Below, piece after piece: positions 12,221 through 39,230 of a DNA stretch of 64,000 nucleotides (position 1 is its first letter; each line of letters begins with the position of its first letter). This stretch comes from Candidatus Iainarchaeum sp. GTDB lineage: Archaea > Iainarchaeota > Iainarchaeia > Iainarchaeales > JAGVWC01. The notes beneath the pieces were generated by a model. The model did not search any database. It was not told the DNA's origin and was given only the letters and a program-made list of their open reading frames with translations. The stretch spans positions 62,001 through 126,000 of the forward strand of contig JAGVWC010000010.1 of the NCBI GenBank assembly GCA_018304465.1. Reading direction: 5' to 3'. The translations under genes and the position numbers were made by a program.

Positions 12221-15088
12221 TTATTTATCACTCAAGCGAATAAAAAAGCTTCGTTTGATCAGGAGTTTCAATTCGCCAGTACCAGGAACGATTTTGACGC
12301 GCGCGTCCGATTCCAATTGTTTTGAAAAACGCTTCACGAAACCCGCATCCGTGGAACCCAGTTCCAGAACCGCCAAGGCGTCTTGCTGGAGTTTGGCGGC
12401 TTTCCGGGCGTCCTGAACCAATCGACGCAATTCCATGTATTCCCATTCGTCTTCAAGGTTCGCGTCCGCGGACACGTCCAAAAACACGGTAAACCCGTCT
12501 CCTTGTTTTGAAGCAAAAATTCCTTTCGGAGGAAACTTTGATTCTGACGCTTTTTTCACGTTGGCCTGGCTTTCAAGCACCGGCAACACCCGACCAAACG
12601 TTTTTCCGGTTTTCGTCACGACCACGAGTTCACGCAATGGCCAGCGCAATTTTTTCTTTTGTTCTTCGCGCAAAGCAAGCGAAATCTGAACGACTTCCGA
12701 CAATTTTCCAAACGCGGACTCAAGCTCCAAATCCTGATGCTTGGAGTCGAACACCGGAAGCAAATTCAAATGCACGCTTTTGAACATCTTTTCGCTTTTT
12801 CCGTGCAAATAAAAATGCTCGGACACATGCGGACACAACGGAGAAAGCAACCGGATCACGGAAAACAAAGCAAAACTCATGACCCGCGAAAGATCCGACG
12901 AATCGCCCACTTTTGCGCGATCGCGAATCAATTTGATGTAGGTACGCGACAAATCATTGATCACGAATGCTTCCAGCACATTGGCGACCCGGAAAAACTC
13001 GTACTTGTTATACGCCTCCGAACACGCTTTGATGACCGAATGCGTGCGGCTTAAAAGCCACCGGTCTTCCAGGCCAGACACTTTGGGCGCGGATTCATTG
13101 GACGCAAAATCCAAGTCCAAATACAACGCCGCGTAATTATAACTGTTCCAAAGAATCGAAAAAAACTTGTGAATCTCCGAAAACGCTTCCCAGTCAAACA
13201 CGATGTCGTCTCCGCCGCTGACTTGCGACAAATAAAACCGCAAATAATCCCGCGAATATTTTTCAATGACTTCACCGGGAGACACGATGTTTCCCTGGGA
13301 CTTGGACATTTTTTTCTTGGCCAAATCCAAGACCATGCCATGCACGGCCACGGCTTTGAAGGGTTTTTGGTCAAAACAAATCTGGGAACAAATCAATTCG
13401 CTGTTCCACCAGCCGCGAAACTGATCCGTGGCCTCGATATTCAAATCCGCCGGCCAGAACTTCTTGAACAAATCGGTTTTCGCCGGATACCCCAAGGCCG
13501 CCCAGCTTGAAACCCCCGAATCAAACCATACATCCAGCACATGGGAAACGCGTTTTTGGACACCACCGCATGTTTTGCATTTAATCGTAATCTGGTCGAT
13601 CCACGGCTTGTGCAAATCCATGTCTTTGGGCAATTTCGTCAACGATTCCAATTCTTTTTTGCTTCCCACCACTGTTTTTTCATCGCATTTTTCACACACC
13701 CAAATCGGCAACGGCGTTCCCCAATACCGGCTGCGCGACACCGGCCAATCGCTTAATCCTTCCAACCACCCATTCATGCGCCCCTTCATTCTGGCCGGAA
13801 CCCACTCCACGGACTGGTTTTCCTTAACCAAATCGCTTCGGAATTTTGAAATCCGAAAAAACCACTGGGGCACCGACATCTGCAACAACGGGGATTTATC
13901 GCGCCAGCACACGGGATAATCATGCGAATACGGATGCTCCAGCACCAACGCGTTCAAATCTTTCAAATCATCGATGATTTCGCGGTCCACCACCCGCGCT
14001 TTTTTTCCAGCGTATTTACCCGTTTCGGGTTTTAGATTCCCGTTTAATTCCACTGGCGAAATCGCGGGCAGACCCGCTTTGGTTCCCGCGTCAAAATCTT
14101 CTTTTCCGTGACCGGGCGCCGTATGCACCAAACCGGTTCCGTCTTCCACCGTCACATACCGATCCGATAAAATCACGCGATAAGCGTTCTCGAGTTTTCC
14201 CAGTTTCAGATGATTCGAAAGCGGGTTTTCGTACTTTGTTCCTTCCAGTTCTTTTCCCGGAAACGTTTTCAAAATCACATACCCCGCTTCCAAGGCGTCC
14301 ATCAACGGCACTAACCGATCCTTGGCCACAATCCAAATCTCGGCGCCAACCTGGGCTTCAACGTATTCGTATTTCGGATGCACCATAACCCCTGTGTTTC
14401 CCGGCAATGTCCACGGTGTCGTGGTCCAAATCACCAAAAACCGATTGTCGCTTTCCTTGACCTTGAACTTGACATAAATCGACGAATCGGTTTGCTTAAC
14501 GTATTCAATTTCATTGAACGCGACCGCGGTTTCACAATGCGGACACACGTGCACGGGATACAACCCCAAATACAACAAATTTTTTTCATGGGCTTTTTTG
14601 AAGGTCCACCACACGGCTTCAATATACTCGTTTTTGTACGTAATATACGGATTATCCCAATCCATCCACACGCCCAAGTCCTCAAACTGTTGGTTCATCA
14701 CGGGAATAAACTGCGACGCGAAAAGACGGCATTCTTCAATGAATTTTTCAACCCCAAAAGACTCGATATCGGTTTTGGATTTGAACCCCAATTTTTGTTC
14801 CACTTTGAATTCAATCGGAACCCCATGGGTATCATACCCCGGGCGATCAAACACGTCAAACCCTTGCATGCGCTTGGACCGCATCGCGATGTCTTTCAGG
14901 GTTTTGTTTAACGCCGTGCCCATATGAATGTTTCCCGTTGCGTACGGAGGCCCATCCATGAAATAAAACTTTTTCTCGGATTTTTTGTACTGCGCCCGCG
15001 CTTCGGAGGACACGTTGTTTTTTTTCCAGTACGCCGCAACAGCTTCTTCGCTTTGATGCGAAAACGGTCCCAATTGTTTTTTTGGCAT
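12221..15088 (-). CDS. ileS: isoleucyl-tRNA synthetase
   Basis: A 955-residue class I synthetase that charges tRNA-Ile. Visible: GPPYATGNIHMGTALNKTLKD (HIGH-like HMGT) near residue 45, an editing domain with IWTTTPWTLPGNTGVMVHP (threonine-rich region) and GTGLVHTAPGHGKEDFD, and KKKMSKSQGNIVSPGEV for the KMSKS loop. A zinc-type pair CEKCDEK ... CKTCGG lies between them. ATG at 15088 (MPKKQLGPF) is preferred over a frame extension to 15121 that overlaps the toxin gene. A tRNA-Ile gene lies about 640 bases upstream on the same strand. Confidence 0.97.
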   Translation of the reverse strand: MPKKQLGPFSHQSEEAVAAYWKKNNVSSEARAQYKKSEKKFYFMDGPPYATGNIHMGTALNKTLKDIAMRSKRMQGFDVFDRPGYDTHGVPIEFKVEQKLGFKSKTDIESFGVEKFIEECRLFASQFIPVMNQQFEDLGVWMDWDNPYITYKNEYIEAVWWTFKKAHEKNLLYLGLYPVHVCPHCETAVAFNEIEYVKQTDSSIYVKFKVKESDNRFLVIWTTTPWTLPGNTGVMVHPKYEYVEAQVGAEIWIVAKDRLVPLMDALEAGYVILKTFPGKELEGTKYENPLSNHLKLGKLENAYRVILSDRYVTVEDGTGLVHTAPGHGKEDFDAGTKAGLPAISPVELNGNLKPETGKYAGKKARVVDREIIDDLKDLNALVLEHPYSHDYPVCWRDKSPLLQMSVPQWFFRISKFRSDLVKENQSVEWVPARMKGRMNGWLEGLSDWPVSRSRYWGTPLPIWVCEKCDEKTVVGSKKELESLTKLPKDMDLHKPWIDQITIKCKTCGGVQKRVSHVLDVWFDSGVSSWAALGYPAKTDLFKKFWPADLNIEATDQFRGWWNSELICSQICFDQKPFKAVAVHGMVLDLAKKKMSKSQGNIVSPGEVIEKYSRDYLRFYLSQVSGGDDIVFDWEAFSEIHKFFSILWNSYNYAALYLDLDFASNESAPKVSGLEDRWLLSRTHSVIKACSEAYNKYEFFRVANVLEAFVINDLSRTYIKLIRDRAKVGDSSDLSRVMSFALFSVIRLLSPLCPHVSEHFYLHGKSEKMFKSVHLNLLPVFDSKHQDLELESAFGKLSEVVQISLALREEQKKKLRWPLRELVVVTKTGKTFGRVLPVLESQANVKKASESKFPPKGIFASKQGDGFTVFLDVSADANLEDEWEYMELRRLVQDARKAAKLQQDALAVLELGSTDAGFVKRFSKQLESDARVKIVPGTGELKLLIKRSFFIRLSDK

Positions 15089-27834: not shown

Positions 27835-28202
27835 TTTCTATTCCTCCGTTATGCAGACAAAAATTTCTTTCGGCAAATCCTTTTTTAACCAAACGAAATT
27901 GAAAACAATTGGCCTCAGTTCGCCCATCTCTCCTCACCCCTTGCGGTCAGAGTCATCGTCAGTTCGTCATCGGCCATCAGAATAACTGGATAAAAGGTTT
28001 TTAACTGGGCGAGAAGCGGTGTTAGCGCTGGAATCGTGCCGCCCAAAAACAAGCAATTTCAATCATTTTTACCGCCCAAAGCCACCCCTGTTTCAAAATA
28101 AACCTATATTATTGATTTAATGGCTAATTTAATGGCCTTTGTTGATTTTAATTTGCCGCCCAAATGCATACAAATAAATACTATTTCGCGCATATTCTTC
28201 GT
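27835..28202. other. 368-base intergenic stretch at the left edge of the accessory island
   Basis: Holds the leftmost copy of the dispersed ADDELT repeat (27958-27977) with its TATA-like box, and near 28140-28190 the AT-rich promoter of the Fic gene. A 20-codon minus-strand frame (27977 down to 27915) starts at the repeat. No larger gene seen. Confidence 0.6.
27958..27977 (-). repeat. dispersed ADDELT repeat, copy A
   Basis: Minus-strand sequence ATGGCCGATGACGAACTGAC. A TTAAAA box starts 29 bases before the GGCC. A frame starting at this ATG reads MADDELTMTLTARGEERWAN and stops at 27915. On the plus strand the unit is preceded by CAGAGTCATC, also present in copy C. Confidence 0.75.
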
Positions 28203-29156
28203 ATGAGTTATCTGGAAATAAAAAGACGCAATAATGAACGGTACGCGTATTTTGTCAAGAAATGGTCGCTTCAAGGAAAACGCTTTGTGTTGCGACGGTA
28301 TATCGGGAAAGCGACCAGCATGGTTTCCAAAGAGAGTTTTCTATCTAAAAACATGGGCTCATTGGTCGATGAAGAACTCAATTTACGAAAACCGATTTGG
28401 GAAAAAGCAATTTCCATATCGCATGATCCAAGGCAAATCGAGAAAGTCGAAAAAAAAGCGGTCCTGTTAAACGACCTTGTTGACGCTCAAAACGCTCAGC
28501 AACTTGTACGGGCGGAATTCGCCAAGGAATTCATTTATAATTCGAATAACATCGAGGGATCGCGTATACCAAAAGAAAAACTGGTTGAATTGTTCGAAAA
28601 AGGAACAACGTCCTACAAAAACCAAAATGAAGTGACCGAAGTAACGAATTCAATTCGGACTTTCGAGTACTTGGAAAACGATTTTGCATTCACGCTCAAA
28701 AACATCAAGCGTCTTTATTCGATTCTTACGAAAGGACTGTATCTGGAAAATCAAAACCCGTACCCGCGCGGATTCAAAAAAATCGAAATCGTGGTCGGTG
28801 AATCCAGAACCACTGCGCCTGAAGACGTTGAAGAGGAACTCAAAACCCTATTGGCCTGGAACAAAGCAAACGCCAAAACAATGTATCCCCCGCAACGCGC
28901 ATTCGAATTCCACGCACGCTATGAGCACATCCATCCATTCCAAGACGCCAACGGCCGAACCGGAAGACTTCTCCTGAACAAAATCCTGCTGCAAAACAAC
29001 TATCCGCCGATCATTGTCTATAAAGACAACAAGACGGCCTATTTCAATTCCATCAAGGAAACACAAGAAGGAAACAAAAGCAAATACTATCAATTCATGC
29101 TCGAACAAACCGAGAAGACCTACGACCAAATGATCGGCATCCTGAAAAAATACTAA
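28203..29156 (+). CDS. Fic-domain protein (probable AMPylase)
   Basis: A 317-residue Fic protein. The catalytic motif HPFQDANGRTGR lies near residue 250 with the active His, and the inhibitory-helix motif SNNIEG ([S/T]xxxE[G/N]) at about residue 117 indicates an auto-inhibited class II type. Fic enzymes transfer AMP or other groups from nucleotides to target hydroxyls. ATG at 28203 (MSYLEIKRR) is preceded by AT-rich AAATAAATA 26-34 bases upstream. The gene is bracketed by ADDELT repeats A and B. Confidence 0.93.
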   Translation: MSYLEIKRRNNERYAYFVKKWSLQGKRFVLRRYIGKATSMVSKESFLSKNMGSLVDEELNLRKPIWEKAISISHDPRQIEKVEKKAVLLNDLVDAQNAQQLVRAEFAKEFIYNSNNIEGSRIPKEKLVELFEKGTTSYKNQNEVTEVTNSIRTFEYLENDFAFTLKNIKRLYSILTKGLYLENQNPYPRGFKKIEIVVGESRTTAPEDVEEELKTLLAWNKANAKTMYPPQRAFEFHARYEHIHPFQDANGRTGRLLLNKILLQNNYPPIIVYKDNKTAYFNSIKETQEGNKSKYYQFMLEQTEKTYDQMIGILKKY

Positions 29157-29188
29157 AAAGAGATTATCAGAAGTAGATAGCGGTAATA

Positions 29189-29207
29189 GTCAGTTCGTCA
29201 TCGGCCA
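29189..29207 (-). repeat. dispersed ADDELT repeat, copy B
   Basis: Minus strand: TGGCCGATGACGAACTGAC. A TTTAAA box starts about 30 bases upstream of GGCC. The frame TTG-GCC-GAT-GAC-GAA-CTG reads LADDELTITAIYF and stops; shortly after it a CTTTTTAG T-run follows. Located between the Fic gene 3' end and the 3' end of the membrane-protein gene. Confidence 0.75.
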
Positions 29208-29277
29208 ACAAAGACGTGCAGGCAGGATTGTTTAAACAGAATTAAATTCCTAATTTCCCCTATCGAATATTGTCTCG

Positions 29278-29670
29278 TTAAATCGACTCTTGTTCGACAC
29301 CAGCATTCATTCGCCATTTGTATAAGGCTAATCCAAGTAGGTATGGCACTCCAAGAGCCCCATAATACAATCCGGCCACTTGCCATAACCCGTAATAGAA
29401 CTCCAATGTACGCGCAATGGCAATTCCTTGCGTGAGAATTACACTGATTCCAAATACAACGGAAAAAACAATTCCGACCCACTTGAAAACTTCCGATAGT
29501 TTTTCAGCAGACGGCGGCCTCCCTTTGCTTTTTACCCCCGCATGAAAAAAGCCGATGGTGATTAATGGCGCGGGAACAAGCAGCACAGCAGAATTCATCC
29601 ACACCTGAAAAGGAGGAAGAATCAAGAAAAATAATTCCGCAACAATAAGCACCACAAGTTCTTGTTTCAT
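29278..29670 (-). CDS. hypothetical membrane protein
   Basis: A 130-residue protein with four hydrophobic segments (about residues 5-25, 27-44, 66-85 and 95-118) separated by a basic loop GVKSKGRPPSAEKLSE. No family recognised. Starts 12 bases after the nucleotidyltransferase stop on the same strand, so it may be the third gene of the HEPN-MNT operon. Confidence 0.55.
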   Translation of the reverse strand: MKQELVVLIVAELFFLILPPFQVWMNSAVLLVPAPLITIGFFHAGVKSKGRPPSAEKLSEVFKWVGIVFSVVFGISVILTQGIAIARTLEFYYGLWQVAGLYYGALGVPYLLGLALYKWRMNAGVEQESI

Positions 29671-29682
29671 GTTTGGGTCACC

Positions 29683-30012
29683 CTATGCTATCTTGGTCCC
29701 CGTGTCGAGGGCTGTTTTGACGATTCCGAGCTGGGTTTTTCGTTGCTCGATTTCTTTTGGAGTGTAGCAAAAAGGCTCGATGTCTTGGCCGATGGGTTCG
29801 GTGGATAATTGCAGTATTTGGTCGATTCGGTTTCGAAAGGTTATTCCTTCGAATTGATTAGAGATAATCAGGATATCCCAGTCGCTGTCGTTGCGTTCTT
29901 CTCCTCTGGCTCTCGAACCGAATAGAATGATTTGTGCCGGAAGAAACCGTTGTTTGATTCGAGCCACCAGTTTTTGGACTGGTTCGCTTATTCTAATTTT
30001 TTTTCCAACCAT
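29683..30012 (-). CDS. mntA: MNT-type nucleotidyltransferase, antitoxin of HEPN-MNT module
   Basis: A 109-residue minimal nucleotidyltransferase. The signature IILFGSRARGEERNDSDWDILI (G-S-x-A-R-G ... D-x-D) is complete near residues 28-49. In HepT-MntA modules this enzyme AMPylates and silences the HEPN ribonuclease. Its first 25 bases overlap the end of the HEPN gene, typical of such pairs. Confidence 0.9.
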   Translation of the reverse strand: MVGKKIRISEPVQKLVARIKQRFLPAQIILFGSRARGEERNDSDWDILIISNQFEGITFRNRIDQILQLSTEPIGQDIEPFCYTPKEIEQRKTQLGIVKTALDTGTKIA

Positions 30013-30368
30013 GTAATCAACTCTTTGGCGTCCATCAAAATTTCTTTGGTGATTTTTTCGTCGTAAGTTTTGGCGGGCAAATCGCCAGCCGCATCAGGAT
30101 AGCGGCTGATGATGAAATCACGGGATAGTTTGCGCGCTTTGGAAAGAAGGTTTTCGGGGACTCCGATGAGTTCTCCGAGTTCGCGCAAGTTATGAAGGTT
30201 TGGCGGGCTTTGGTTTTTTTGGAACATGAAAACGGCTTTCATGGCTTTTTCGACAGCTTGCTGGCAGAGAAAAGCGCAGACATAATAGTATTTGGTTTTG
30301 TAGTTGGATTCCGCAGCCTGCAGGTCGATTTGGGCTTGTTCCATCCATATTTCGATTTCCCGACGCAT
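29988..30368 (-). CDS. hepT: HEPN-domain protein, putative toxin
   Basis: A 126-residue four-helix HEPN protein: MEQAQIDLQAAESNYK, YVCAFLCQQAVEKAMKAVF and ARKLSRDFIISRYPDAAG. The S-R-D-F-I-I-S-R-Y-P-D block corresponds to the active-site region; the canonical RxxxxxH ends with Tyr-Pro-Asp instead of His, as in the COG1895-like branch, so RNase activity is uncertain. Overlaps the MNT gene downstream. Confidence 0.85.
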   Translation of the reverse strand: MRREIEIWMEQAQIDLQAAESNYKTKYYYVCAFLCQQAVEKAMKAVFMFQKNQSPPNLHNLRELGELIGVPENLLSKARKLSRDFIISRYPDAAGDLPAKTYDEKITKEILMDAKELITWLEKKLE

Positions 30369-30560
30369 ACAAGAGTTCTCGTTTAAAGTTGTTTTAAACC
30401 TTTGGAAAAAGATATGACACTGACTACTTCACGGTCATTGTGAGTTGAACATCAACACCCGTTATTGGTGTTACTCACTTTCATGGGCAAAACTTGCCAA
30501 TAACAAAACAATCATGCGGCGAAGTGGTTAAAATTCGGTCGCTAAACCGAGAGTGGCGGT
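30369..30560. other. 192-base intergenic stretch with structured DNA
   Basis: Contains a 12-pair bulged hairpin (30440-30478) and a diverged ADDELT-like repeat (30434-30453). No gene seen. It separates the HEPN-MNT operon from the methyltransferase operon. Confidence 0.5.
30434..30478. repeat. diverged ADDELT-like unit overlapping a bulged hairpin
   Basis: GTCATTGTGAGTTGAACATC (30434-30453) matches 15 of 20 positions of the plus-strand repeat in copy A. It overlaps a hairpin GTGAGT / ACTCAC plus AACACC / GGTGTT (12 pairs, eight-base bulge, seven-base loop). Could be an eroded copy or a terminator. Confidence 0.4.
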
Positions 30561-31136
30561 TCATTCCCTGTGTTTGAACACTAGCCCGTAGTGGTGCGGG
30601 GGTAAATCGTATTTTTTGTGGAGTGTTAGCCCTGCTTTTTTTGCCCATTGTATTATTTGTTCTGGTTTTGGTCGGATTTGCATTGGTGGGCCTCTTGGCG
30701 TGGTGGGGTCGTAATTCCAGTGTATTACTGCAACAGTTCCGTTTGGGTTCAGTATTCTGCTGGCTTCGACTAGCAAGCCAACGGGGTTTTCGCCGTGCAG
30801 GATGTTGAATAGTAAGACATGCTGGACTGAATTGTCTTTGAGGCCAGTGCCGTTTCTTGAAACATCTCTTTTGAGCGTTTTAATGTTTTTCAGGTTTTTT
30901 TGTCTTGCTTGCGCTTTTAGGCGTTCAATCATTTCTGGGTCTATCTCGATTGCGAACACCGTTTCCTTAGTTCTTCTTGCTGCTGGAATGGTGAAGGTTC
31001 CATAGCCACTTCCGACATCGACTATGTGGCCTTCTTTTACCCCCAAAGTTTCAAGTATTTTTCGGGGTTTGAAGAATTTTTTCCAATGGTGTTCTTGCGG
31101 CATTCCGCTTTCTCTATACTTTGGGATTATGATCAC
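30561..31136 (-). CDS. class I SAM-dependent methyltransferase
   Basis: A 191-residue Rossmann-fold methyltransferase. Motif I is HIVDVGSGYGTFTIPAA near residue 38, the acidic loop AIEIDPEM follows, then KRDVSRNGTGLKDNSVQHVLLFNILH and ILNPNGTVAVIHW. The substrate is unknown. Start is GTG at 31136, overlapping the DsrE-like stop (GTGA), so it is coupled to the ArsR-DsrE operon. This linkage and the ArsR regulator suggest metalloid methylation, but the three cysteines of ArsM are absent. Confidence 0.85.
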   Translation of the reverse strand: MIIIPKYRESGMPQEHHWKKFFKPRKILETLGVKEGHIVDVGSGYGTFTIPAARRTKETVFAIEIDPEMIERLKAQARQKNLKNIKTLKRDVSRNGTGLKDNSVQHVLLFNILHGENPVGLLVEASRILNPNGTVAVIHWNYDPTTPRGPPMQIRPKPEQIIQWAKKAGLTLHKKYDLPPHHYGLVFKHRE

Positions 31137-31456
31137 CCGACTGTGAGTATTTTGTCTGAGTCTTCAACCAGATTAAGCAAATCTTTCATTGTTGAAATCG
31201 GGCAGACATTGCTTCCTTCCTTGTGCCTTGACTGGAGGCAGGTGCCGCAGGCCAATATTTTGCCCTTGTTCTGGATGAATGCGGTAATTTGTTCTTTCAC
31301 ACCATATTTTTCGTTTTCGGTATCTTCGGCTTCAACGCCCTCGTTTATGAGAAAAACCGTTACGCCATGATTTGCTTTGAGGGCAGTCACTCCGAACCTG
31401 AACGCGTTCCAGGCTTTTTCAGGTTCTTTAGTGCTTAAAACAATGCCAACTTTCAT
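31133..31456 (-). CDS. DsrE/F-like sulfur-relay family protein
   Basis: A 107-residue DsrE-like protein: MKVGIVLSTKEPEKAWNAFRFG, VTVFLINEGVEAED and GKILACGTCLQSRH, where the CGTC pair occupies the sulfur-carrier position. Such proteins bind or relay sulfur and occur near ArsR-type regulators. ATG at 31456 has AAAGGATGG upstream. Stop overlaps the GTG of the methyltransferase; start overlaps the preceding gene. Confidence 0.8.
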   Translation of the reverse strand: MKVGIVLSTKEPEKAWNAFRFGVTALKANHGVTVFLINEGVEAEDTENEKYGVKEQITAFIQNKGKILACGTCLQSRHKEGSNVCPISTMKDLLNLVEDSDKILTVG

Positions 31457-31953
31457 TTTTTCCCATCCTTTCTTTTGAATAGCAAATAAATGTTGAGCGC
31501 AATTGACGCCACCAGCAGCAACCAAAAAACAAGGTTATCCAAATAAAACGGGTTTTGCCAATAGCCTCCCAGCCCTGTTGCCCATTGCATCATCCAAGGC
31601 CCCATCATTCCCGGCCCCGTTGAGCCTATGCTTGAGCCATTGAAGCAGTGCAAATAGCTCTTGCCCATAGAAATATGCACGGCTTGCAAGGATTCAGACC
31701 CCTCGCCACCAAGCATAGCATCCATTGTTTCATGCGCCGCACCTGGATGCATTTGCTCCATTAAAGAATCTCCCAATTCTTCAAACTGAAGGTCGCTTAC
31801 CTTGCCGCAATTGATTTGACTGGCATTTGATATTCCTTGCGTGGACATTATTTCCGAGAAAACGGTTTCAACGCTTGGAATGCTTTCCGCGGCAAAAACG
31901 CCTAAAGAAAACAACAACAAAAACAACAAATTGGCAGCAGCCAACTTTTTCAT
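31453..31953 (-). CDS. exported Met/His-rich protein with C-terminal membrane anchor
   Basis: A 166-residue protein: signal peptide MKKLAAANLLFLLLFSLGVFA, ectodomain with MEQMHPGAAHETMDAMLGG and a Gly/Met/Trp-rich stretch TGPGMMGPWMMQW, then a membrane helix FWLLLVASIALNIYLLF and a basic tail. Met and His clusters suggest metal sensing or binding at the cell surface. Second gene of the ArsR operon (ATGA overlap with arsR). Confidence 0.65.
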   Translation of the reverse strand: MKKLAAANLLFLLLFSLGVFAAESIPSVETVFSEIMSTQGISNASQINCGKVSDLQFEELGDSLMEQMHPGAAHETMDAMLGGEGSESLQAVHISMGKSYLHCFNGSSIGSTGPGMMGPWMMQWATGLGGYWQNPFYLDNLVFWLLLVASIALNIYLLFKRKDGKK

Positions 31954-32273
31954 TTTACCACCCCGCGAACCATTTTCTGCCTGCTTTGAATCTGTTCAAG
32001 CAAAACCTCGCGAATCAGGTTGCACGCCTTCACCATTTTGGGAAAAGCGATTTTGTAATAAACCGCAGTGCCGTCTTTCCTGCTTGCAATAACCTCTTTC
32101 AGTCTCAGGATGGCGAGATGCTGCGAAAGATTCGCCTGCCTCAGGCCAGTTTGTTTGGCAAGCTCGGAAACAGATTTCTCGCCCTCGCCAAGCAAATAAA
32201 GGATTTTCAAGCGTTTTTTATCCGCCAGCGTCTTGCACAACTCTGCATGCATGCCAAATAAATCGTCATTCAT
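31950..32273 (-). CDS. ArsR-family winged-helix regulator
   Basis: A 107-residue ArsR/SmtB repressor: LADKKRLKILYLLGEGEKSVSELAKQTGLRQANLSQHLAIL (helix-turn-helix) and VIASRKDGTAVYYKI (wing). A single Cys (LCKTLAD) lies in the first helix and another near the C-terminus (KACNLI), so a CxC metal site is not obvious. First gene of a four- or five-gene operon and likely autoregulated through the inverted repeat just upstream. Confidence 0.9.
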   Translation of the reverse strand: MNDDLFGMHAELCKTLADKKRLKILYLLGEGEKSVSELAKQTGLRQANLSQHLAILRLKEVIASRKDGTAVYYKIAFPKMVKACNLIREVLLEQIQSRQKMVRGVVK

Positions 32274-32274
32274 A

Positions 32275-32292
32275 TATTCAAATATACGAATA
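32275..32292. promoter_or_regulatory. inverted-repeat operator candidate for ArsR
   Basis: TATTC-8-GAATA is a perfect inverted repeat two bases upstream of the arsR start, in an AT-rich promoter that also contains TTTAAATATT about 30 bases upstream. Position and shape fit an ArsR operator. Confidence 0.5.
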
Positions 32293-32398
32293 CAACAATA
32301 TTTAAAACATAATGTGTGCGGATCAGTTCGCCCAACTGCTCCGAAAGACGAAGAATTATTTACATTTCTTAAGTTCTTGAGAATGCGCTTTTGGGCAG

Positions 32399-33478
32399 TT
32401 AAGGAAAATTTACTGGTGTACGATATCCTGCCGTGACAAAGACAAGTTCTATTTGTGCCTCACCGTATTGGTTAAACACAATTGGCCCGGCAACTCCATT
32501 TATTTTCAGTTCCTGAACAGTGCCCTTTGTTATCTGCTTTTTGACAAGTGCATCCAAAACTAACATAAGATCATAGCCATAATGCGCAACAAAATCCGGC
32601 TCCGAGCCGTATTGGCTTTTGAAAGCAGCCCTAAATTGCTCCGCTTTTCCAGATTCAACTAATGCAGATGGAACCAACGAATAAACTTCTCCAAGCAGCC
32701 CCTTGGCGTTTTCCTGGACAAAGTTGCTTTGAATATCTTCTGTGGAAACCACCGGAATATTTTCCATTCCCAATTCTGACCTTTGCTTTAAAAAATTCAA
32801 AGCATGCGGAGGATAACCCAGAAAAAAGATTGCGTCCGGGTTTGTGGCTTTTATTTTGCTAAGTGTTGTTCTAAAATCAGTTTGTGATAACTGGTAATTT
32901 TCTTGAATAAGAATCTCTCCCCTGAATTCATCTTTAAACTTTTTTTGCATTGCCTGACCAAACTCATCCTGAATTATCAGAAGCGCAACTTTTTGATATT
33001 GTTTTTTATCCAAAAAATTAACAATTTTGGAAATCTGGTCACTTGGAAGCGGATACATCAGGAAGGCATATTCGCTCTTTCGCGTGTATTCAGATGGATC
33101 CAAGGAAGTCAAAGCTGCAAATACCGGAATGCTGTGCTGTTCCGCAATCGGAAGAATCGGGGAAACATGAAGCGCCTGGATTGTCAATATGACACCGGCT
33201 TGATTTGAGTCAATAAGATTGTTCAATGCAGTAACAGCTTCTTTTGGGTCTGTTTTTGTGTCTTCAATATGCAAAGCCAAATCTGAATTGTTTAAATCTT
33301 TCTGGGCAAGTTCCATTCCTCGAAAAAAATCCTGCCCAAGCGAAGCAGCGGGTCCAGTCTGTGGAATCAAGACAGCAATATTTAATTTTTCCTGCGAATC
33401 AGGTTCATTATTTTGGACACATCCGCTAAAAGCAACTATTGCCACAGTCAATACAAGCAGTAGAAAACCTGTTTTCAT
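32399..33478 (-). CDS. branched-chain amino-acid-type ABC substrate-binding lipoprotein (orphan)
   Basis: A 359-residue periplasmic-binding-fold type I protein. Signal MKTGFLLLVLTVAIVAFSGC (lipobox FSGC), then LNIAVLIPQTGPAASLGQDFFRGMELA, VILTIQALHVSPILPIAEQ and HYGYDLMLVLDALV, the LivJ/LivK layout. No permease or ATPase gene is nearby, so it may serve a transporter encoded elsewhere or act as a sensor. Bounded upstream by repeat copy C. Confidence 0.85.
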   Translation of the reverse strand: MKTGFLLLVLTVAIVAFSGCVQNNEPDSQEKLNIAVLIPQTGPAASLGQDFFRGMELAQKDLNNSDLALHIEDTKTDPKEAVTALNNLIDSNQAGVILTIQALHVSPILPIAEQHSIPVFAALTSLDPSEYTRKSEYAFLMYPLPSDQISKIVNFLDKKQYQKVALLIIQDEFGQAMQKKFKDEFRGEILIQENYQLSQTDFRTTLSKIKATNPDAIFFLGYPPHALNFLKQRSELGMENIPVVSTEDIQSNFVQENAKGLLGEVYSLVPSALVESGKAEQFRAAFKSQYGSEPDFVAHYGYDLMLVLDALVKKQITKGTVQELKINGVAGPIVFNQYGEAQIELVFVTAGYRTPVNFP

Positions 33479-33694
33479 GCATTTACAATATTATTTTTTA
33501 AATTTAAAAATCCCTCGGTGCGCCCAGCTTTCGTCATCGCCGTCACGTCCGGCGCGTACGGGCACTAGCGCACTACGTTCGATAGGGCTGCTTGCTGCGC
33601 CTTTAGACCGACTCAGAGTCATCCTCAGTTCATCATCGGCCAGTAGTCTATAGGTAATACAAAAGGAATTTAAAGAAACAAACAGAAAATGGGT
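33479..33694. other. 216-base intergenic stretch with repeat copy C
   Basis: A GC-rich part at 33520-33610 differs in composition from its AT-rich flanks and is open on the minus strand from the repeat: after LADDELRMTLSRSKG the frame continues for about 50 codons to a TAA near 33495. Otherwise no gene. Confidence 0.45.
33624..33642 (-). repeat. dispersed ADDELT repeat, copy C
   Basis: Minus strand: TGGCCGATGATGAACTGAG. TTTAAA box 33 bases before GGCC. The frame CTG-GCC-GAT-GAT-GAA-CTG gives LADDELRMTL. On the plus strand it shares CAGAGTCATC with copy A, so the similarity covers about 31 bases. Confidence 0.72.
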
Positions 33695-34639
33695 TCATGC
33701 TATTTCGGCGGGTACTCTTTTGGGAACGCCAGATGGGCGAATTCTTTCTCGTGTTTCGATGGATGCAAGCAGAGAGTCCAGTGCTTGTTGTCCTTGGGCC
33801 GTTTTTCCTTTGAAGAACTTGTGATATGCGTGTCTGGCAAAAAAGTAGGTGTCCCAAAACTCTTTGTTTCGTAAAAAAGACTGAACTATTTCTCTGTCGG
33901 GATATGCCCGCAAAAAGTAGTATGGGTTTTGGGTGAATCGAATGAATTTTCCCAAATCCATTTCCGCAATTCCCAATTTTATTGTAAGGTCGTCAATCAT
34001 GATTATTCTTCCGTTGGGAGTTCGAACGATATTTTGGGGGGCAAAATCGTCATGAATATAACGAATGTTAAACTGTCGGGGGAATGCAGCTGAAAATCTT
34101 CCCCTTATCGCTCTGCCTTGCTTGGCTGAAAGTATCTTTTTTTGTTCGAGGAAAGAAATATATGCGTTAAATTCTTTTCGGAGGCTCCGGCGCATAAGAA
34201 GGTTTTGAAATATTTTTTTCTGTGGTGAAACCCCGTGGAGGGAATGAAGGGCTTTGCTGATTTTTCGGGTATCCGCAATTGTTTCTGATTCTCGAAGGTC
34301 GTTTCCGGGCGTGAATTCGGAAAAAACAACGTTCTTGTACCTCCCAATGACCGGTCTCACTGCCGCCCCCTGTGATTGCATCTGGTCGTGCAATCGTACC
34401 CGTTGGCGAGGGCTTGCTTCTCGTCCGTAGCGATTTTGAAGCAAACGTGCACTAATCCTTCTGCCATCTGGAAATTGCAGGACAAAAACGTGCCCTTTTG
34501 GAGAAAGCGGTTCAACAGAAACGGGCCGTTCTCCAAGGCTAATTTGTGCGATGTCCGAAAAGAAAGTGAGAGGACTCGTTATATCGCTTTTTTTGAATGC
34601 ACGCTTCAGTGCATATTGAAGTCGTTTTCCCGCTTTCAT
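33695..34639 (-). CDS. aminoglycoside-phosphotransferase-like kinase
   Basis: A 314-residue protein kinase-fold phosphotransferase. RYIHDDFAPQNIV gives the catalytic loop (H-x-D ... N) and GRIIMIDDLTIKLG the metal-binding Asp (DFG equivalent). ETIADTRKISKALHSLHGV precedes it, as in APH-like families. The substrate is unknown. ATG at 34639 follows TTTTATTCATAAAAG by about 25 bases. Bracketed by repeat copies C and D. Confidence 0.75.
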   Translation of the reverse strand: MKAGKRLQYALKRAFKKSDITSPLTFFSDIAQISLGERPVSVEPLSPKGHVFVLQFPDGRRISARLLQNRYGREASPRQRVRLHDQMQSQGAAVRPVIGRYKNVVFSEFTPGNDLRESETIADTRKISKALHSLHGVSPQKKIFQNLLMRRSLRKEFNAYISFLEQKKILSAKQGRAIRGRFSAAFPRQFNIRYIHDDFAPQNIVRTPNGRIIMIDDLTIKLGIAEMDLGKFIRFTQNPYYFLRAYPDREIVQSFLRNKEFWDTYFFARHAYHKFFKGKTAQGQQALDSLLASIETRERIRPSGVPKRVPAEIA

Positions 34640-34732
34640 GCTCACAACTAGACATACTTTTATGAATAAAATCTTTTCTTTGCGGAAACGGCGGTCCAAT
34701 CGGCATATTATCTAGACGTGTTCTGGTTAATC

Positions 34733-34751
34733 GTCAGTTCATCATCGGCCG
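34733..34751 (-). repeat. dispersed ADDELT repeat, copy D
   Basis: Minus strand: CGGCCGATGATGAACTGAC. TTAAAA box starts 29 bases before GGCC. The frame (ACG)-GCC-GAT-GAT-GAA-CTG reads ADDELTINQNTSR then TAA. Its upstream part TTAAAATTCCTTTGCATAC resembles the same region of copy C. Between HicA and the kinase gene. Confidence 0.72.
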
Positions 34752-34789
34752 TTCAATGTTGTATGCAAAGGAATTTTAACAACTATTTT

Positions 34790-35014
34790 TCATTCAAGCA
34801 GCCTAAAGAATTCGTCTTTGTTCATACGCAAGTCTTCTTTAATGATTTTGGTCAGCAAATGGGGGCCGATGGGTTCGTTTCCATGCACAGGAACTGACGT
34901 CTTGCGTCCATCCGGATGCTCGAACCGATAATGGCTTCCACGTGAACGCGTTTCGACAAAACCAAGTTTTTTGAGTGCACGAAACAAATCGCGTGGCGAC
35001 AAGGTTTGGGTCAA
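34790..35014 (-). CDS. hicA: HicA-like mRNA interferase toxin
   Basis: A 74-residue HicA: LSPRDLFRALKKLGFVETRSRGSHYRF with the conserved GSH containing the catalytic His, then TSVPVHGNEPIGPHLLTKII. Cleaves mRNA when freed from HicB. The start appears to be TTG at 35014, four bases after the HicB stop. Confidence 0.92.
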   Translation of the reverse strand: MTQTLSPRDLFRALKKLGFVETRSRGSHYRFEHPDGRKTSVPVHGNEPIGPHLLTKIIKEDLRMNKDEFFRLLE

Positions 35015-35017
35015 AAA

Positions 35018-35227
35018 TTACACCCGAACGATCTGGATTCCCACAAAATCAGTTTTAACATCGACAGGCGCGTCTTCAAGGCACAACAAGATGACTTCCT
35101 TGACGCGTTCAATAAGCGCATCCATGGTTTTGGCTTGGGTATGGCAACCCTGTAATTCAGGAACATCGGCTACGAGCCAACCCGCTTCATCCTGCTCGAT
35201 AATGACTTTAAATTCCCTCGACATCAT
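35018..35227 (-). CDS. hicB: HicB-like antitoxin
   Basis: A 69-residue HicB: FKVIIEQDEAGWLVADVPELQGCHTQAKTMDALIERVKEVI, the partial RNase H-like fold of the antitoxin. It lacks the C-terminal DNA-binding extension seen in longer HicB proteins. Two adjacent ATG codons (35227 and 35224) can start it. Precedes hicA in one operon. Confidence 0.92.
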   Translation of the reverse strand: MMSREFKVIIEQDEAGWLVADVPELQGCHTQAKTMDALIERVKEVILLCLEDAPVDVKTDFVGIQIVRV

Positions 35228-35451
35228 TTCACATTAAAAATAACCCCAAAACAATATAAAAACGGCTCTTTTTCGGCAAACAACGACTATGAATATTTGC
35301 CCAGATTAAAAGAAAAAAGTATTACAGAGAATCACCGGTGTTCTCGGACTATTTCGACCACTGAATTAGTCAAACAAAGAAAACCCAATGATTCTTTTAT
35401 GAATAATAGGAATCTCCATTGCATATGCCGGCATTTAACTTGCCGGTCGCT

Positions 35452-35601
35452 TTAAATCTTGTCAGGAGCATTTTGGAGCGATTTCGCACACTTTTCTTTC
35501 CAGTATACGCGTTCTTCCAGAATCCACTGTTTTTCTTTTTCCAGTTCCGCCAAATCAATCTTCAAAAGCTTCAACCCTTCTTGCATAACAGCACTCTGCA
35601 T
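35452..35601 (-). CDS. small leaderless coiled-coil protein
   Basis: A 49-residue frame starting with ATG at 35601 (or 44 residues from ATG 35586): MQEGLKLLKIDLAELEKEKQ then WILEERVYWKEKCAKSL and a short tail. Heptad-like hydrophobic spacing predicts one coiled-coil helix. A GTTAAAC box (35624-35630) is centred 26-27 bases before 35601, fitting a leaderless start. Too short for easy recognition; coding character is inferred from amino-acid pattern and promoter. Confidence 0.5.
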   Translation of the reverse strand: MQSAVMQEGLKLLKIDLAELEKEKQWILEERVYWKEKCAKSLQNAPDKI

Positions 35602-35718
35602 CAACAATATCTACAAACGAAGTTTAACCTTTGTGTGATTACAAAAGAAATGGAGCGGATGAGCAAACGAATCTAACACCCCATCGTTTACCCAATTATG
35701 GTAAAAAAGAAAATAAGA

Positions 35719-36396
35719 TTATTTTTTTCGTAGATGAAAAAATTTACAGATCAGTTGGTTACCGACCCCCATACCTAAGAACGCCCCCTTGAGCACTTCA
35801 AATCCCAGTTCTTCTAGCCTCTTTTTTTGTTGGTTAAGAAGATCGAAATCCGATCCTCGCAGACCGTACAAGTTACCCACTTCTTGATTGACCAACAATT
35901 CGCCTCCCGACAGGAGAATTCGATGCGCTTCTTTGACAGAAGATTCAAAATCACTGTGTGTCAATCCAAAGTACGAGTAAATCAAATCGAAATGATTGGC
36001 TGGAAAACGGGTTTTTTCCGCATGAGCGACGCGAAAGGCGACCGTCCGGTATTTTTTCCAAGAATCCAATCGCTTCAAACTCAATCCATGCGCCTTAATA
36101 TTCGGAAAATCTGCGGCCAGTTGGGAAATCGCTTCTCCGTCCAAACAACCGAGATCCAAGACGCGAATTTGGCGTGTTCCCGCGCACATTTGAAGGTTTT
36201 GAACTATTGAGGAAAACTTTGCTCGAAAATCCGATTCGATAGCCCGAAGCGGGGTTCTTCTGACACTCCACAAATCAGACGGCGAACCACCATAACGAAG
36301 CGATTGCCAATCTTTCTTCCGGTCTTGGCGAAGTCGTTTCCCCAATCGTCGCCGCTTTAAAGCGTCTTCAGGACTACGTGGCTTTCGGAAATTCAT
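35719..36396 (-). CDS. class I SAM-dependent methyltransferase
   Basis: A 225-residue protein with an Arg/Lys-rich N-terminus (MNFRKPRSPEDALKRRRLGKRL) and a methyltransferase core: RIRVLDLGCLDGEAISQLA (motif I) near residue 75, ANHFDLIYSYFGLTH and AHRILLSGGELLVNQ. The substrate is unknown. ATG at 36396; the TTTTATAATTT box near 36420 supports it. Between repeat copy E and the small coiled-coil gene. Confidence 0.82.
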   Translation of the reverse strand: MNFRKPRSPEDALKRRRLGKRLRQDRKKDWQSLRYGGSPSDLWSVRRTPLRAIESDFRAKFSSIVQNLQMCAGTRQIRVLDLGCLDGEAISQLAADFPNIKAHGLSLKRLDSWKKYRTVAFRVAHAEKTRFPANHFDLIYSYFGLTHSDFESSVKEAHRILLSGGELLVNQEVGNLYGLRGSDFDLLNQQKKRLEELGFEVLKGAFLGMGVGNQLICKFFHLRKK

Positions 36397-36492
36397 GCAG
36401 AAAAAAGAAGACAAGAGAAATTATAAAACCAGAAGAGTACTGGATGAGCACAGAACCGAATTTTATGTTATCAAGAGTAGTTCTCGATAATA

Positions 36493-36511
36493 GTCAGTTC
36501 GTCATCGGCCA
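36493..36511 (-). repeat. dispersed ADDELT repeat, copy E
   Basis: Minus strand: TGGCCGATGACGAACTGAC, identical over 19 bases to copy B. The frame GTG-GCC-GAT-GAC-GAA-CTG reads VADDELTIIENYS then TGA. An A/T run lies about 28 bases upstream. CGATAA and TTATCG flank the unit as a 6-base inverted repeat. Between GNAT and the methyltransferase gene. Confidence 0.75.
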
Positions 36512-36536: not shown

Positions 36537-36935
36537 TTACTGCGATCCGGCCGGAAAATCAATCCGCAATTCCTGGGCGATGTTTTGAAATCCCATTCCC
36601 TTGTACCAAGCATGCGCGCGGGTTTCGGGATGCTTACTCGTGCAAATCAGTTTGTAACACCCGTGTTCGGCCGCGCCTTCGATGACCCTTTTTACGATGG
36701 CGGTTCCATACCCTTTTCCGCGAAAGTCGTCATGGACAAACACGTCTTCCATGAAACCCCACGGTTCGGAATGCAAATCGTTTTTGAGCACGTACAGATA
36801 CGCGCGCGCGATTTCGATTCCATCCGAAGCGATCACGTACTTGATTCCTTTGGCCGGAGCCGCATAGTCGGTGATTTCAACGGACACATTTTCCAGGGTA
36901 TATAATTTAGTTATAATATTTATATTTGTTTTCAT
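36537..36935 (-). CDS. GNAT-family N-acetyltransferase
   Basis: A 132-residue GNAT protein: EDVFVHDDFRGKGYGTAIVKRVI carries the acetyl-CoA-binding RGKGYG loop (R/Q-x-x-G-x-G/A), followed by YKLICTSKHPETRAHAWYKGMGF. The acceptor is unknown. Start ATG at 36935 overlaps the tgt stop (ATGA). Confidence 0.9.
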   Translation of the reverse strand: MKTNINIITKLYTLENVSVEITDYAAPAKGIKYVIASDGIEIARAYLYVLKNDLHSEPWGFMEDVFVHDDFRGKGYGTAIVKRVIEGAAEHGCYKLICTSKHPETRAHAWYKGMGFQNIAQELRIDFPAGSQ

Positions 36936-38023
36936 TTCCACTTTAAACGCTGGCGAAAACGCGAAAACGAACCCGATTCGATCTCTTCGCGGATACGTGT
37001 CATCAAGTGCTGGATGAAAAAAAGATTGTGAAACGACAAGTACTTCATGCCGTTTTCCTCCCCCGTCCGAAACAAATGATGCACATACGCGCGCGAATGC
37101 GATTCGCACACAAAACACGCGCACTCGGAATCAATCGGCGACAAATCAAACCGATGCGACCTGTTCGCCAAATTAATCCGGCCTTTACGGGTAAACGCCA
37201 AGCCATGCCGGCCGGTTTGCGTCGGAAACGCGGAATCAAAACAATCCACTCCCAGCGAAACCGCCATGACCAATTGCTCCGGCGTGCCAACTCCCATCAA
37301 ATACCGCATTTTTTCCGGATCCATCTCTTTCGTGTCGATCGGAACCATTTTTTCCACCCAATGACTCGGCTCGCCGATCGCAAGCCCCCCCAAGGCCAAA
37401 CCGTCAAACGGAAGCGAATTCATCAATTCCGCGGATTTCTTTCTGAGTTTCGCGTTTGTTCCGCCTTGCGCGATTCCAAACAACAACTGCCGCTTGTTTT
37501 CATGCGCATCCAAACACCGTTTTCCCCATTCAAACGTCCGGTGCATGGATTCGGTCAACCGCGCGATCGATGAACCCGGAAGCGGCATGTCATCCAAACA
37601 CATCGCCACATCGCTTTTCAACCGGTTCTGAATCACCATGGCTTTTTCCGGCGTTAACACATCCAATGCCTGATCAAACGGATTTCGAAACGTCACGCCG
37701 CGATCATCGATCTTTTGAAAAAACTCGGGGCGAATCACCTGAAAACCCCCGGAATCCGTGAAAATTCCGCGATCCCAGCCCACGAACTTGTGCAATCCCC
37801 CCGCTTTTTTCACCACGTCTAAACCCGGGCGCAAAGAAAACACGTAACTATTCGAAATAAACGCTTCGATTCCAATGGATCGCAATTCTTCCATCGAAAC
37901 CAGTTTCACGGAACCCTTGGTCGCCACCGGCATGAAAAAAGGCGTTTTGATTTTGCCATGCGCCGTGGTTAACGTTCCCACGCGGGCGTCTTTGTCCGAC
38001 ACGCCCAGCGAAAACGCGTTCAT
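36932..38023 (-). CDS. tgt: tRNA-guanine transglycosylase of bacterial/eukaryotic (queuine) type
   Basis: A 363-residue TGT. FTDSGGFQV near residue 88 supplies the general base Asp, DCFDSAFPTQTGRHG near 264 the nucleophile region, and CACFVCESHSRAYVHHL the zinc site (C-x-C-x2-C ... H). Length and the C-terminal motif match bacterial Tgt or eukaryotic QTRT1; archaeal archaeosine TGTs have a C-terminal PUA extension and different motifs. LDDMPLPG replaces the bacterial LDECTPYP. Whether it acts at tRNA position 34 or 15 cannot be read from sequence. Coupled to GNAT downstream and a hypothetical gene upstream. Confidence 0.93.
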   Translation of the reverse strand: MNAFSLGVSDKDARVGTLTTAHGKIKTPFFMPVATKGSVKLVSMEELRSIGIEAFISNSYVFSLRPGLDVVKKAGGLHKFVGWDRGIFTDSGGFQVIRPEFFQKIDDRGVTFRNPFDQALDVLTPEKAMVIQNRLKSDVAMCLDDMPLPGSSIARLTESMHRTFEWGKRCLDAHENKRQLLFGIAQGGTNAKLRKKSAELMNSLPFDGLALGGLAIGEPSHWVEKMVPIDTKEMDPEKMRYLMGVGTPEQLVMAVSLGVDCFDSAFPTQTGRHGLAFTRKGRINLANRSHRFDLSPIDSECACFVCESHSRAYVHHLFRTGEENGMKYLSFHNLFFIQHLMTRIREEIESGSFSRFRQRLKWK

Positions 38024-38538
38024 TTAAGCGACCCCAAAAACCGCTTTAAACTACTCAACCACACCCGGCCATAATGATCCGGCAACAAATACCGCTGGCC
38101 AACCAACTGCCCGACTTTTTTCTCGGAAATTCCCAACGCCAAACCCACGGCTTTTCGGCTCAACACCGCAGACGCGGCTTTCGGAACCGCGGACGCGACA
38201 TTTTCCCGCGCTTGTGCGATCGAAACCCGCGGATTCAAATCCGAAAAAAAAACCAATTTTCGAACTGGGGCCTTCAGCGTGCCTTTTCGCAGAAAACTAA
38301 CAAACTCGTTTGCAACGGAAGACGGAACCAATAACCGGTGGTTTGTTCCCCTTTTTTCCGAATATGAACCCAAAACGGTTCTTGGAAGACGCGGGTTCTG
38401 CATTTTTTTCCGGATAAACGCTTCGATATGCGCGGCACGCACGCGAAAATTGATTTTTTGAGCCGCTTGCAGGATCTGTGGAAGCGAGCGAAAACCCGCA
38501 GGCGTTTTTCGCGGCCCCTTCAATTCGAAAGCCTCCAA
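38020..38538 (-). CDS. hypothetical protein between AlaX and Tgt
   Basis: A 172-residue basic protein. Starts at TTG 38538, overlapping the AlaX stop by 19 bases, and its stop overlaps the tgt start by four bases, so alaX, this gene, tgt and GNAT form one operon. The C-terminal LSRKAVGLALGISEKKVGQLVGQRY resembles a helix-turn-helix. No family recognised; a tRNA-linked role is suggested only by context. Confidence 0.6.
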   Translation of the reverse strand: MEAFELKGPRKTPAGFRSLPQILQAAQKINFRVRAAHIEAFIRKKMQNPRLPRTVLGSYSEKRGTNHRLLVPSSVANEFVSFLRKGTLKAPVRKLVFFSDLNPRVSIAQARENVASAVPKAASAVLSRKAVGLALGISEKKVGQLVGQRYLLPDHYGRVWLSSLKRFLGSLK

Positions 38539-39230
38539 TAAATTCGCCGGTTCTCCGCGCCTTTGTTCTTCAAATCAAAAATCTCGATTCCGCCCACTTC
38601 CTTGGTGAAGGCGACATGGGTTCCGCCATCCGCTTGAACATCCACGTCGCCGATCGAAACGATCCGAAGCACCGGCAGATTCTTCGGCAACACGTCTTTT
38701 AAGCGAAACAATTCCGGACGCTTGACTGCATCCTCGAATTTTTCAAACGAAGTCGAAACCGCCAGATTCCGCGCGATCAAATCGTTTGTTTTTTGCTCAA
38801 AATCCTTTAATCGCTCGCGCCCCACGTCTTGCGACGAAAAATCCATCCGACACTGATCCAAATCCAGCTGATTCCCCGTAATCAACGCACCGGTTTCGGA
38901 AAACAACACATGGGCCAGCAAATGCGCCGAGGTATGCGAACGCATCAAGCGATGACGACGATCCCAATCAATCGTTCCTTTCACGTAATCGCCGATCCTT
39001 AAACCCGGTTTATCGACCACGTGAACGATTTCCGCGCCGTTGCGCCGACACCCCGACACAAAAAACGACTCGTTTTCTCGCGTTAAAACGCCCGTATCCG
39101 ACGGTTGTCCACCGCCTTGCGGATAAAACACGGTTTGATCCAACACCACGGATTTTTCATCGATCAAACCCGTCACCATCGCGTCGCATTGACGCAAATA
39201 ATGGTCTTTTAGAAACAATTCCACTGTCAA
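38520..39230 (-). CDS. alaX: AlaX-type alanyl-tRNA editing protein
   Basis: A 236-residue stand-alone editing domain that deacylates mischarged tRNA-Ala. FYPQGGGQPSDTGVL is the AlaRS-like N-terminal motif, HRLMRSHTSAHLLAHVLF carries the HxxxH zinc ligands, and VQADGGTHVAFTKEVGGIEI the third-site block. In this block the usual Cys (CGGTHV) is Asp, a possible ligand change. Length fits the medium form (AlaX-M). Start is TTG at 39230. Confidence 0.9.
   Translation of the reverse strand: MTVELFLKDHYLRQCDAMVTGLIDEKSVVLDQTVFYPQGGGQPSDTGVLTRENESFFVSGCRRNGAEIVHVVDKPGLRIGDYVKGTIDWDRRHRLMRSHTSAHLLAHVLFSETGALITGNQLDLDQCRMDFSSQDVGRERLKDFEQKTNDLIARNLAVSTSFEKFEDAVKRPELFRLKDVLPKNLPVLRIVSIGDVDVQADGGTHVAFTKEVGGIEIFDLKNKGAENRRIYWRLSN

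What the first reader, a model, noticed from the sequence alone, without database searches (positions are those of the whole stretch)
27958..36511. Same-orientation ADDELT repeats punctuate an accessory gene island
Five copies (A 27958, B 29189, C 33624, D 34733, E 36493) of GTCAGTTCGTCATCGGCCA or a close variant lie only between genes of the 27.9-36.5 kb island, all in one orientation, and a weaker sixth is at 30434. They bracket discrete modules: A-B Fic; B-C HEPN-MNT, ArsR-DsrE and the substrate-binding gene; C-D phosphotransferase; D-E HicAB, a small gene and a methyltransferase. The pattern resembles a cassette array, as if genes were inserted at or between these units.
Basis: partly seen in the sequence, partly recalled or inferred. 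Interest (0 to 1): 0.78.

Follow-up and report, generated by a model that had tools for sequence, protein, structure and literature searches.

The report
Archaeal gene cassettes inserted at sRNA
In an uncultured archaeon, small swappable packages of accessory genes (many toxin-antitoxin and defence-like) are strung together at one RNA gene that guides chemical marking of the ribosome, and relatives gain and lose such packages at these joints, which looks like a gene-collecting system resembling bacterial integrons but built differently.

Summary
Five same-orientation repeats lie in the island and nowhere else in the genome, and the weak "sixth" near 30434 is a real diverged site. The repeat is not a protein tail: copy A is a complete box C/D sRNA gene (27911-27975, minus strand), found in 58 of 75 genomes of the order, with a covarying terminal stem and a D' guide matching the organism's own 16S rRNA. 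B, D, E and site six carry only the sRNA 5' end joined to a 10-5-10 hairpin; C is a truncated sRNA. Relatives have the same sites, mostly in one orientation, separating one-to-few-gene cassettes (RelBE, PIN, HicAB, nucleotidyltransferases, peptidase S51, Fic). The same cassette occurs at different loci and genomes, and syntenic relatives differ by cassettes bounded by sites: homology ends fall in sites in both loci 36 of 110 times against 0.86 expected. Canonical integrons are excluded here (no IntI above cut-off, no attC boxes). Most likely mechanism: site-specific insertion into the sRNA gene, the cassette resupplying promoter and 5' half, by a recombinase acting in trans. The recombinase is not identified; XerA is the only candidate in some positive genomes. 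I found no published description.

The parts
27911..27975 (-). Copy A: complete box C/D sRNA gene, 3'-most element of the array; conserved insertion target
   Evidence: 58/75 genomes; 16S complementarity of D' guide; compensatory changes in all 4 stem pairs
27998..28004 (-). TATA-like box (TTAAAAA) of the sRNA, about 25-30 nt upstream of its 5' end
   Evidence: Read directly; TATA-like boxes at 12/25 sites vs 6.7% random
28164..29156 (+). Cassette B-A: Fic/DOC protein
   Evidence: Pfam PF02661, 59 bits
29161..29206 (-). Site B: sRNA 5' piece plus hairpin junction (6/10 arm pairs)
29278..30368 (-). Cassette six-B: membrane protein (no Pfam), MNT nucleotidyltransferase 29683-30012, HEPN 29988-30368
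   Evidence: Pfam NTP_transf_2, HEPN
30412..30457 (-). Site six: diverged variant junction (8/10 arm pairs), upstream 100 bp shared with sites in G054 and G027
30561..33478 (-). Cassette C-six: methyltransferase 30561-31136, DsrE 31133-31525, unknown 31453-31953, ArsR 31950-32273, substrate-binding lipoprotein 32399-33478
   Evidence: Pfam
33606..33641 (-). Site C: truncated sRNA (5' piece, guide, D' box, then unrelated DNA)
   Evidence: R1 match 34.8 bits; sequence
33695..34699 (-). Cassette D-C: phosphotransferase (APH-like)
   Evidence: Pfam PF01636 20.1 bits, just under cut-off 23.2
34705..34750 (-). Site D: sRNA 5' piece plus hairpin junction (ATTAACCAGA-ACACG-TCTAGATAAT)
34790..36414 (-). 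Cassette E-D: HicA 34790-35014, HicB 35018-35227, methyltransferase 35719-36414
   Evidence: Pfam HicA_toxin, HicB_lk_antitox (under cut-off), Methyltransf_11
36465..36510 (-). Site E: outermost recognised junction (ATTATCGAGA-ACTAC-TCTTGATAAC); no clear TATA box upstream, follows the GNAT gene stop codon by 26 nt

Best explanation
The island is an array of mobile gene cassettes built by repeated site-specific insertion into a conserved box C/D sRNA gene. Each cassette starts with a hairpin (10-nt arms, 5-nt centre) and ends with an archaeal promoter plus the first ~18 nt of the sRNA (stem, C box, CTGAC). Insertion within that shared stretch leaves the old promoter and 5' end in front of the hairpin and gives the rest of the sRNA a new promoter and 5' end. 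The sRNA therefore stays intact at the 3' end of the array (copy A) and every earlier junction survives as a same-orientation repeat (B, D, E, six); C is a junction with a truncated sRNA. Shown: sRNA identity, shared architecture, exchange of whole cassettes at the sites between loci and genomes, travel of promoter and 5' half with a cassette. Inferred: insertion in the window island itself, a circular intermediate, and a recombinase acting in trans, most likely a tyrosine recombinase (host XerA, or one from an unlinked mobile element).
For: sRNA: 58/75 genomes, compensatory stem changes, four boxes align to Rfam sR2, 16S match. Sites confined to the island. Cassette arrays in relatives. Same cassette at different loci: S51 90.8% G024/G050, PIN 88.8% G024/G067, CopG-PIN 89.9%, RelBE 88.5%. 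Homology ends in sites in both loci 36/110 vs 0.86, max 5 of 2000 shifts. Syntenic rbcL and sRNA loci with different cassettes between common flanks. Promoter plus 5' half of the G050 sRNA is 85% identical to the G024 S51 cassette end, 67% or less to all others.
Against: No recombinase is linked to any array and none is identified. The crossover is not resolved to a base: homology fades between TATA box and 5' piece. No strain-level relative of the window, so gain and loss of its own cassettes is not seen directly; E has no clear promoter and its outer border is uncertain. About two thirds of homology ends do not fall in sites, so ordinary deletions and rearrangements also occur.
Confidence: 0.8

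Rival explanations
1. XerA/dif-type modules (a special form of the best explanation): the hairpin is a dif-like core and host XerA moves the cassettes, as XerCD moves pdif modules in Acinetobacter.
For: XerA is the only PF00589 hit in G013 (one contig, 99% complete) and G021, both with a site. Arms of 10-11 nt around a short centre resemble Xer sites.
Against: Centre is 5 nt, not 6; sites are direct repeats; no solitary dif-like site with these arms in array genomes; the insertion target is an sRNA, not dif.
Confidence: 0.2
2. No dedicated recombinase: circular DNA carrying the ~60-nt promoter and 5' sRNA stretch enters by short-homology recombination, and selection for an intact sRNA keeps the joint.
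For: All sites share promoter and 5' piece; the 25-nt stretch between TATA box and 5' piece is mosaic.
Against: Sites share only a short stretch; a conserved inverted repeat at fixed spacing has no role in this model; arrays also occur away from the sRNA locus.
Confidence: 0.12
3. The repeats are a family of small regulatory RNAs or promoter-terminator units that accompany accessory genes and are not recombination sites.
For: Promoter-like box before many sites and a T-run after many hairpins would make a short transcript.
Against: Does not explain why homologous segments end in the sites or why orientation ignores gene direction. It could be true in addition.
Confidence: 0.07
4. Canonical integron or CALIN with attC sites.
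For: Same-orientation cassette array rich in toxin-antitoxin genes; archaeal CALINs exist (PMC9668308).
Against: No IntI above the curated cut-off in 75 genomes; RYYYAAC...GTTRRRY pairs at 0 of 25 sites.
Confidence: 0.02

Closest known systems
Integrons and CALINs, including archaeal ones (Ghaly et al. 2022, PMC9668308)
   Same: Tandem same-orientation arrays of one-to-few-gene cassettes, each with one recombination site, rich in toxin-antitoxin genes
   Different: No IntI, no attC R boxes; the site is the 5' end of a C/D sRNA plus a single hairpin; cassettes carry a promoter; the array ends in an intact sRNA rather than at an attI beside intI
pdif (dif) modules moved by XerCD in Acinetobacter (e.g. 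PMC13141974, PMC6449649)
   Same: Integrase-free gene modules, often toxin-antitoxin, bounded by short inverted-repeat sites
   Different: dif sites are 11-6-11; here about 10-5-10, same orientation, chromosomal, anchored at an RNA gene; XerA role not shown
Archaeal integrative elements in tRNA genes, especially pTN3-like integrases using the tRNA 5' half (review PMC8371274)
   Same: Insertion into an RNA gene with restoration of the gene; exchange in the 5' half so that the element brings a new 5' end
   Different: Target is a box C/D sRNA; elements are ~0.6-4 kb, carry no integrase and accumulate in long tandem arrays
Cis-mobilisable elements and tandem accretion at att sites (own knowledge)
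   Same: Elements flanked by att sites without their own integrase, accreted in tandem
   Different: Here single-gene cassettes shared across loci and genera, not remnants of one large element
Archaeal box C/D sRNAs (Rfam sR2 and relatives)
   Same: C, D', C', D boxes, terminal stem, rRNA-complementary guide
   Different: Below every Rfam gathering score; the gene doubles as an insertion site

Membership tests
Integron | Integron integrase IntI in the genome | tested here: not met
   TIGR02249: 0 of 75 genomes over the cut-off; best 138 bits vs 265, at ordinary Xer-like proteins
Integron | attC sites with R''/R' boxes (RYYYAAC...GTTRRRY) | tested here: not met
   0 of 25 sites; 0.3% in random stretches. 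No attC covariance model was available
Integron | Tandem same-orientation cassettes exchanged at the sites | tested here: met
pdif/Xer modules | Xer-type site with 11-6-11 geometry and dif similarity | tested here: not met
   Arms about 10 with 5-nt centre; no solitary dif-like site with these arms
pdif/Xer modules | Recombination depends on host Xer recombinases | not testable with these tools
   XerA present in nearly all genomes and alone in G013 and G021
Tyrosine-integrase element in an RNA gene | Target RNA gene restored after insertion | tested here: met
   Intact sRNA at the array end in the window, G024, G050, G058, G067; promoter and 5' half cassette-derived in G050
Tyrosine-integrase element in an RNA gene | Element encodes the integrase | tested here: not met
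   No PF00589 hit on array contigs; no site in 60 integrase neighbourhoods
Box C/D sRNA | C, D', C', D boxes and closing stem | tested here: met
Box C/D sRNA | Guides complementary to rRNA or tRNA | tested here: inconclusive
   D' guide: 11 Watson-Crick plus 1 GU pair with 16S at 1008, 5 of 200 shuffles as good; D guide: no convincing rRNA target, tRNAs not tested
Box C/D sRNA | Binding of L7Ae/Nop5/fibrillarin and methylation | not testable with these tools
   Needs experiment

The most novel reading that the evidence does not exclude
A cassette-capture system of its own kind in one archaeal order: the sRNA gene plays the part of attI, cassettes end in an sRNA half and begin with a hairpin recognised by an as yet unknown recombinase, and selection to keep the ribosomal guide RNA intact maintains the insertion point.
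Probability: 0.45. Interest if true: 0.9.

Novelty: new variant of a known kind. Interest (0 to 1): 0.84.

Why it matters
Apart from integrons proper, I found no description of integrase-free, single-gene cassette arrays in archaea. These arrays would show how small-genome archaea trade toxin-antitoxin and defence-like genes one at a time, with the insertion point tied to a ribosome-modification RNA. They also give a concrete, testable site with which to find the recombinase.

Tried and rejected
Protein reading of the repeat (ADDELT...): rejected, loop length varies out of frame and the stem covaries. Whole-collection scan of GTDB contigs with the 16-mer: pattern too short, 118 or more scattered matches, only one locus with two copies. 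Viral contigs with three site patterns: none. Sites near integrases: one weak match, inside a coding gene, taken as chance. Solitary dif-like site with the same arms: only array sites plus two unrelated palindromes in G002 and G065. Sites outside the order: none in the 12 other genomes of the phylum held. An exact empty site for the window island: the conserved neighbourhood (RIO-type kinase, p26521, sRNA, tRNA endonuclease, TrpRS/TyrRS-type synthetase) is compact in G014, but in the window a TGT-AlaX block also lies between E and the endonuclease, so the outer border stays open.

Full report
WHAT WAS CHECKED. The five repeats are real, in one orientation, and confined to the island: 5 in the window against 0.01 expected; in the whole 1.25-Mb genome only these plus one 2-mismatch match elsewhere. 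The genome is archaeal (archaeal 16S and 23S models), a draft genome with no same-genus relative held; genomes are referred to by handle because they are unnamed.

THE REPEAT IS PART OF AN RNA GENE. Copy A extends to a 65-nt element on the minus strand with full-length relatives in other genomes of the order. It weakly matches many Rfam C/D families, best sR2 at 22 bits (gathering score 42), with all four boxes aligned. A covariance model of four sequences finds it in 58 of 75 genomes of the order. In 31 aligned copies all four terminal-stem pairs show compensatory changes (14, 10, 8 and 7 sequences), and the apical loops (CCGCAAGG, CCTTCGGG, GCGAAAGC and others) vary in sequence and length. 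The guide before D' pairs with the organism's own 16S rRNA over 12 positions (11 Watson-Crick, 1 GU); 5 of 200 shuffled guides do as well. The guide before D has no convincing rRNA target.

TWO KINDS OF JUNCTION, AND A THIRD. B, D and E keep only the first ~18 nt of the sRNA (stem, C box, CTGAC). They then run into a hairpin with 10-nt arms and a 5-nt centre, seen most clearly in relatives as CTGACAATTAgCCTGA-tgtac-TCAGGGTAATAT. At this fixed geometry D, E and site six have 8 of 10 complementary positions and B has 6; random window positions reach 8 with P about 0.0005. A TATA-like box lies upstream of 12 of 25 sites against 6.7% at random. C, and the last site of several arrays elsewhere, is a third kind: 5' piece plus guide and D' box, then unrelated DNA.

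THE SIXTH SITE. Window 30412-30457 belongs to a variant whose ~100 bp upstream is shared with sites in G054 and G027 (80-82%). The island thus has five cassettes: E-D HicAB and a methyltransferase; D-C a phosphotransferase-like protein; C-six a substrate-binding protein, ArsR, DsrE and a methyltransferase; six-B HEPN-MNT; B-A Fic.

ARRAYS IN RELATIVES. A model of the junction (three of its 14 training sequences are window sites, so their scores are not independent) finds sites in 12 of 75 genomes of the order (11 in G067, 7 in G024) and none in the 12 other genomes of the phylum held. Arrays of 3-5 sites, nearly always in one orientation (exceptions in G073, G054 and G033), enclose one to a few genes: a RelE-like pair (named from sequence reading, no Pfam hit), PIN and CopG-PIN, nucleotidyltransferases, peptidase S51, MntP, NYN, DUF5680, HicA and Fic. 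Genes inside face either way.

EXACT EXCHANGE AT THE SITES. At the RuBisCO locus G024 holds [S51][NTase][RelBE-like] and G067 holds [RelBE-like][DUF5680-PIN] between the same flanks. Same-genus G050 and G073 have none there; their neighbouring gene lies about 60 bp from RuBisCO. The S51 cassette of G024 (RuBisCO locus) sits in G050 directly before the sRNA (90.8% identical), and the PIN cassette of G067 (RuBisCO locus) sits at the sRNA locus of G024 (88.8%). At the sRNA locus, collinear blocks of G067 and G024 end at 7619, 10162 and 11538 of L188, next to sites at 7613, about 10112 and 11460, and at 12658 next to a stray 3' half of the sRNA. Over all array loci of this group, ends of homologous segments lie in sites in both partners 36 of 110 times; random shifts give 0.86 on average, at most 5 in 2000. 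The pairs are not independent (each counted in both directions, cassettes recur), so the count overstates the number of events, but the contrast is large.

HOW IT LIKELY WORKS. The 110 bp before the G050 sRNA plus its first 17 nt is 85% identical to the end of the S51 cassette of G024 and at most 67% to any other sRNA or site compared, so promoter and 5' half come with the cassette. The 16S guide and the 3' half are most simply read as staying with the chromosome. The simplest reading is insertion within GATGATGANCTGAC: upstream, the old promoter and 5' piece now precede the cassette hairpin; downstream, the cassette's promoter and 5' piece complete the sRNA. The exact base is not resolved, because homology fades between the TATA box and the 5' piece. 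The circular intermediate and the enzyme are inferred. Tyrosine recombinases are favoured by analogy with elements in RNA genes, in particular archaeal pTN3-like integrases that use the 5' half of a tRNA (PMC8371274). XerA is the only PF00589 hit in single-contig genome G013 and in G021, but a solitary dif-like site with these arms was not found. Sixty neighbourhoods of tyrosine integrases contain no site; several of those integrases have a tRNA gene nearby.

WHAT IT IS NOT. Integron integrase: none over the cut-off in 75 genomes. attC boxes: 0 of 25 sites. It works like an integron array but is not one by its defining features. Literature searches returned archaeal integrons (PMC9668308), archaeal Xer/dif (PMC2958812) and pdif modules, but no cassette system based on a C/D sRNA; only open-access papers were searchable.

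LIMITS. No strain-level relatives of the window; incomplete draft genomes; unnamed taxa; recombinase unknown; outer border at E unclear; stray sRNA 3' halves unexplained.

Noticed in passing
G000:C6:162321-164384, L145:7319-9427 (-); similar gap in G067:C11:865-2925: The XerA recombinase gene is interrupted by an intein (Pfam Intein_splicing and LAGLIDADG_3) inserted in the catalytic HxxR region (MRH / C...HN / S).
   Followed up: partly
L140:9002-9020 (-), L188:12637-12655 (+), L189:9836-9881 (-): Stray copies of only the 3' half of the sRNA, two of them about 1.1-1.3 kb downstream of the intact sRNA; they also mark an end of collinearity between G067 and G024 (12658 of L188).
   Followed up: partly
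L179, L180, L181, L182: Genomes G013, G054, G030 and G056 have two or three full-length sRNA copies 0.9-4.1 kb apart in one orientation, with genes such as Fic between them; a variant in which the element carries a whole sRNA.
   Followed up: partly
L186, L187, L190, L259, L260, L261 after the hairpins: Hairpins in G024, G067 and G050 are followed by ATATnCTTTTTT, so promoter, 5' piece, hairpin and T-run could form a short transcription unit or an insulating terminator.
   Followed up: no
window 36537-39230: GNAT, TGT (tRNA-guanine transglycosylase) and an AlaX-type gene lie between site E and the conserved tRNA endonuclease; none was found near the sRNA in relatives, suggesting a separate rearrangement.
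   Followed up: partly
G002:C4:116096-116121: Perfect palindrome ATTATCAGGA-ACGCGT-TCCTGATAAT (10-6-10), single in that genome for the pattern used; a possible dif candidate.
   Followed up: no
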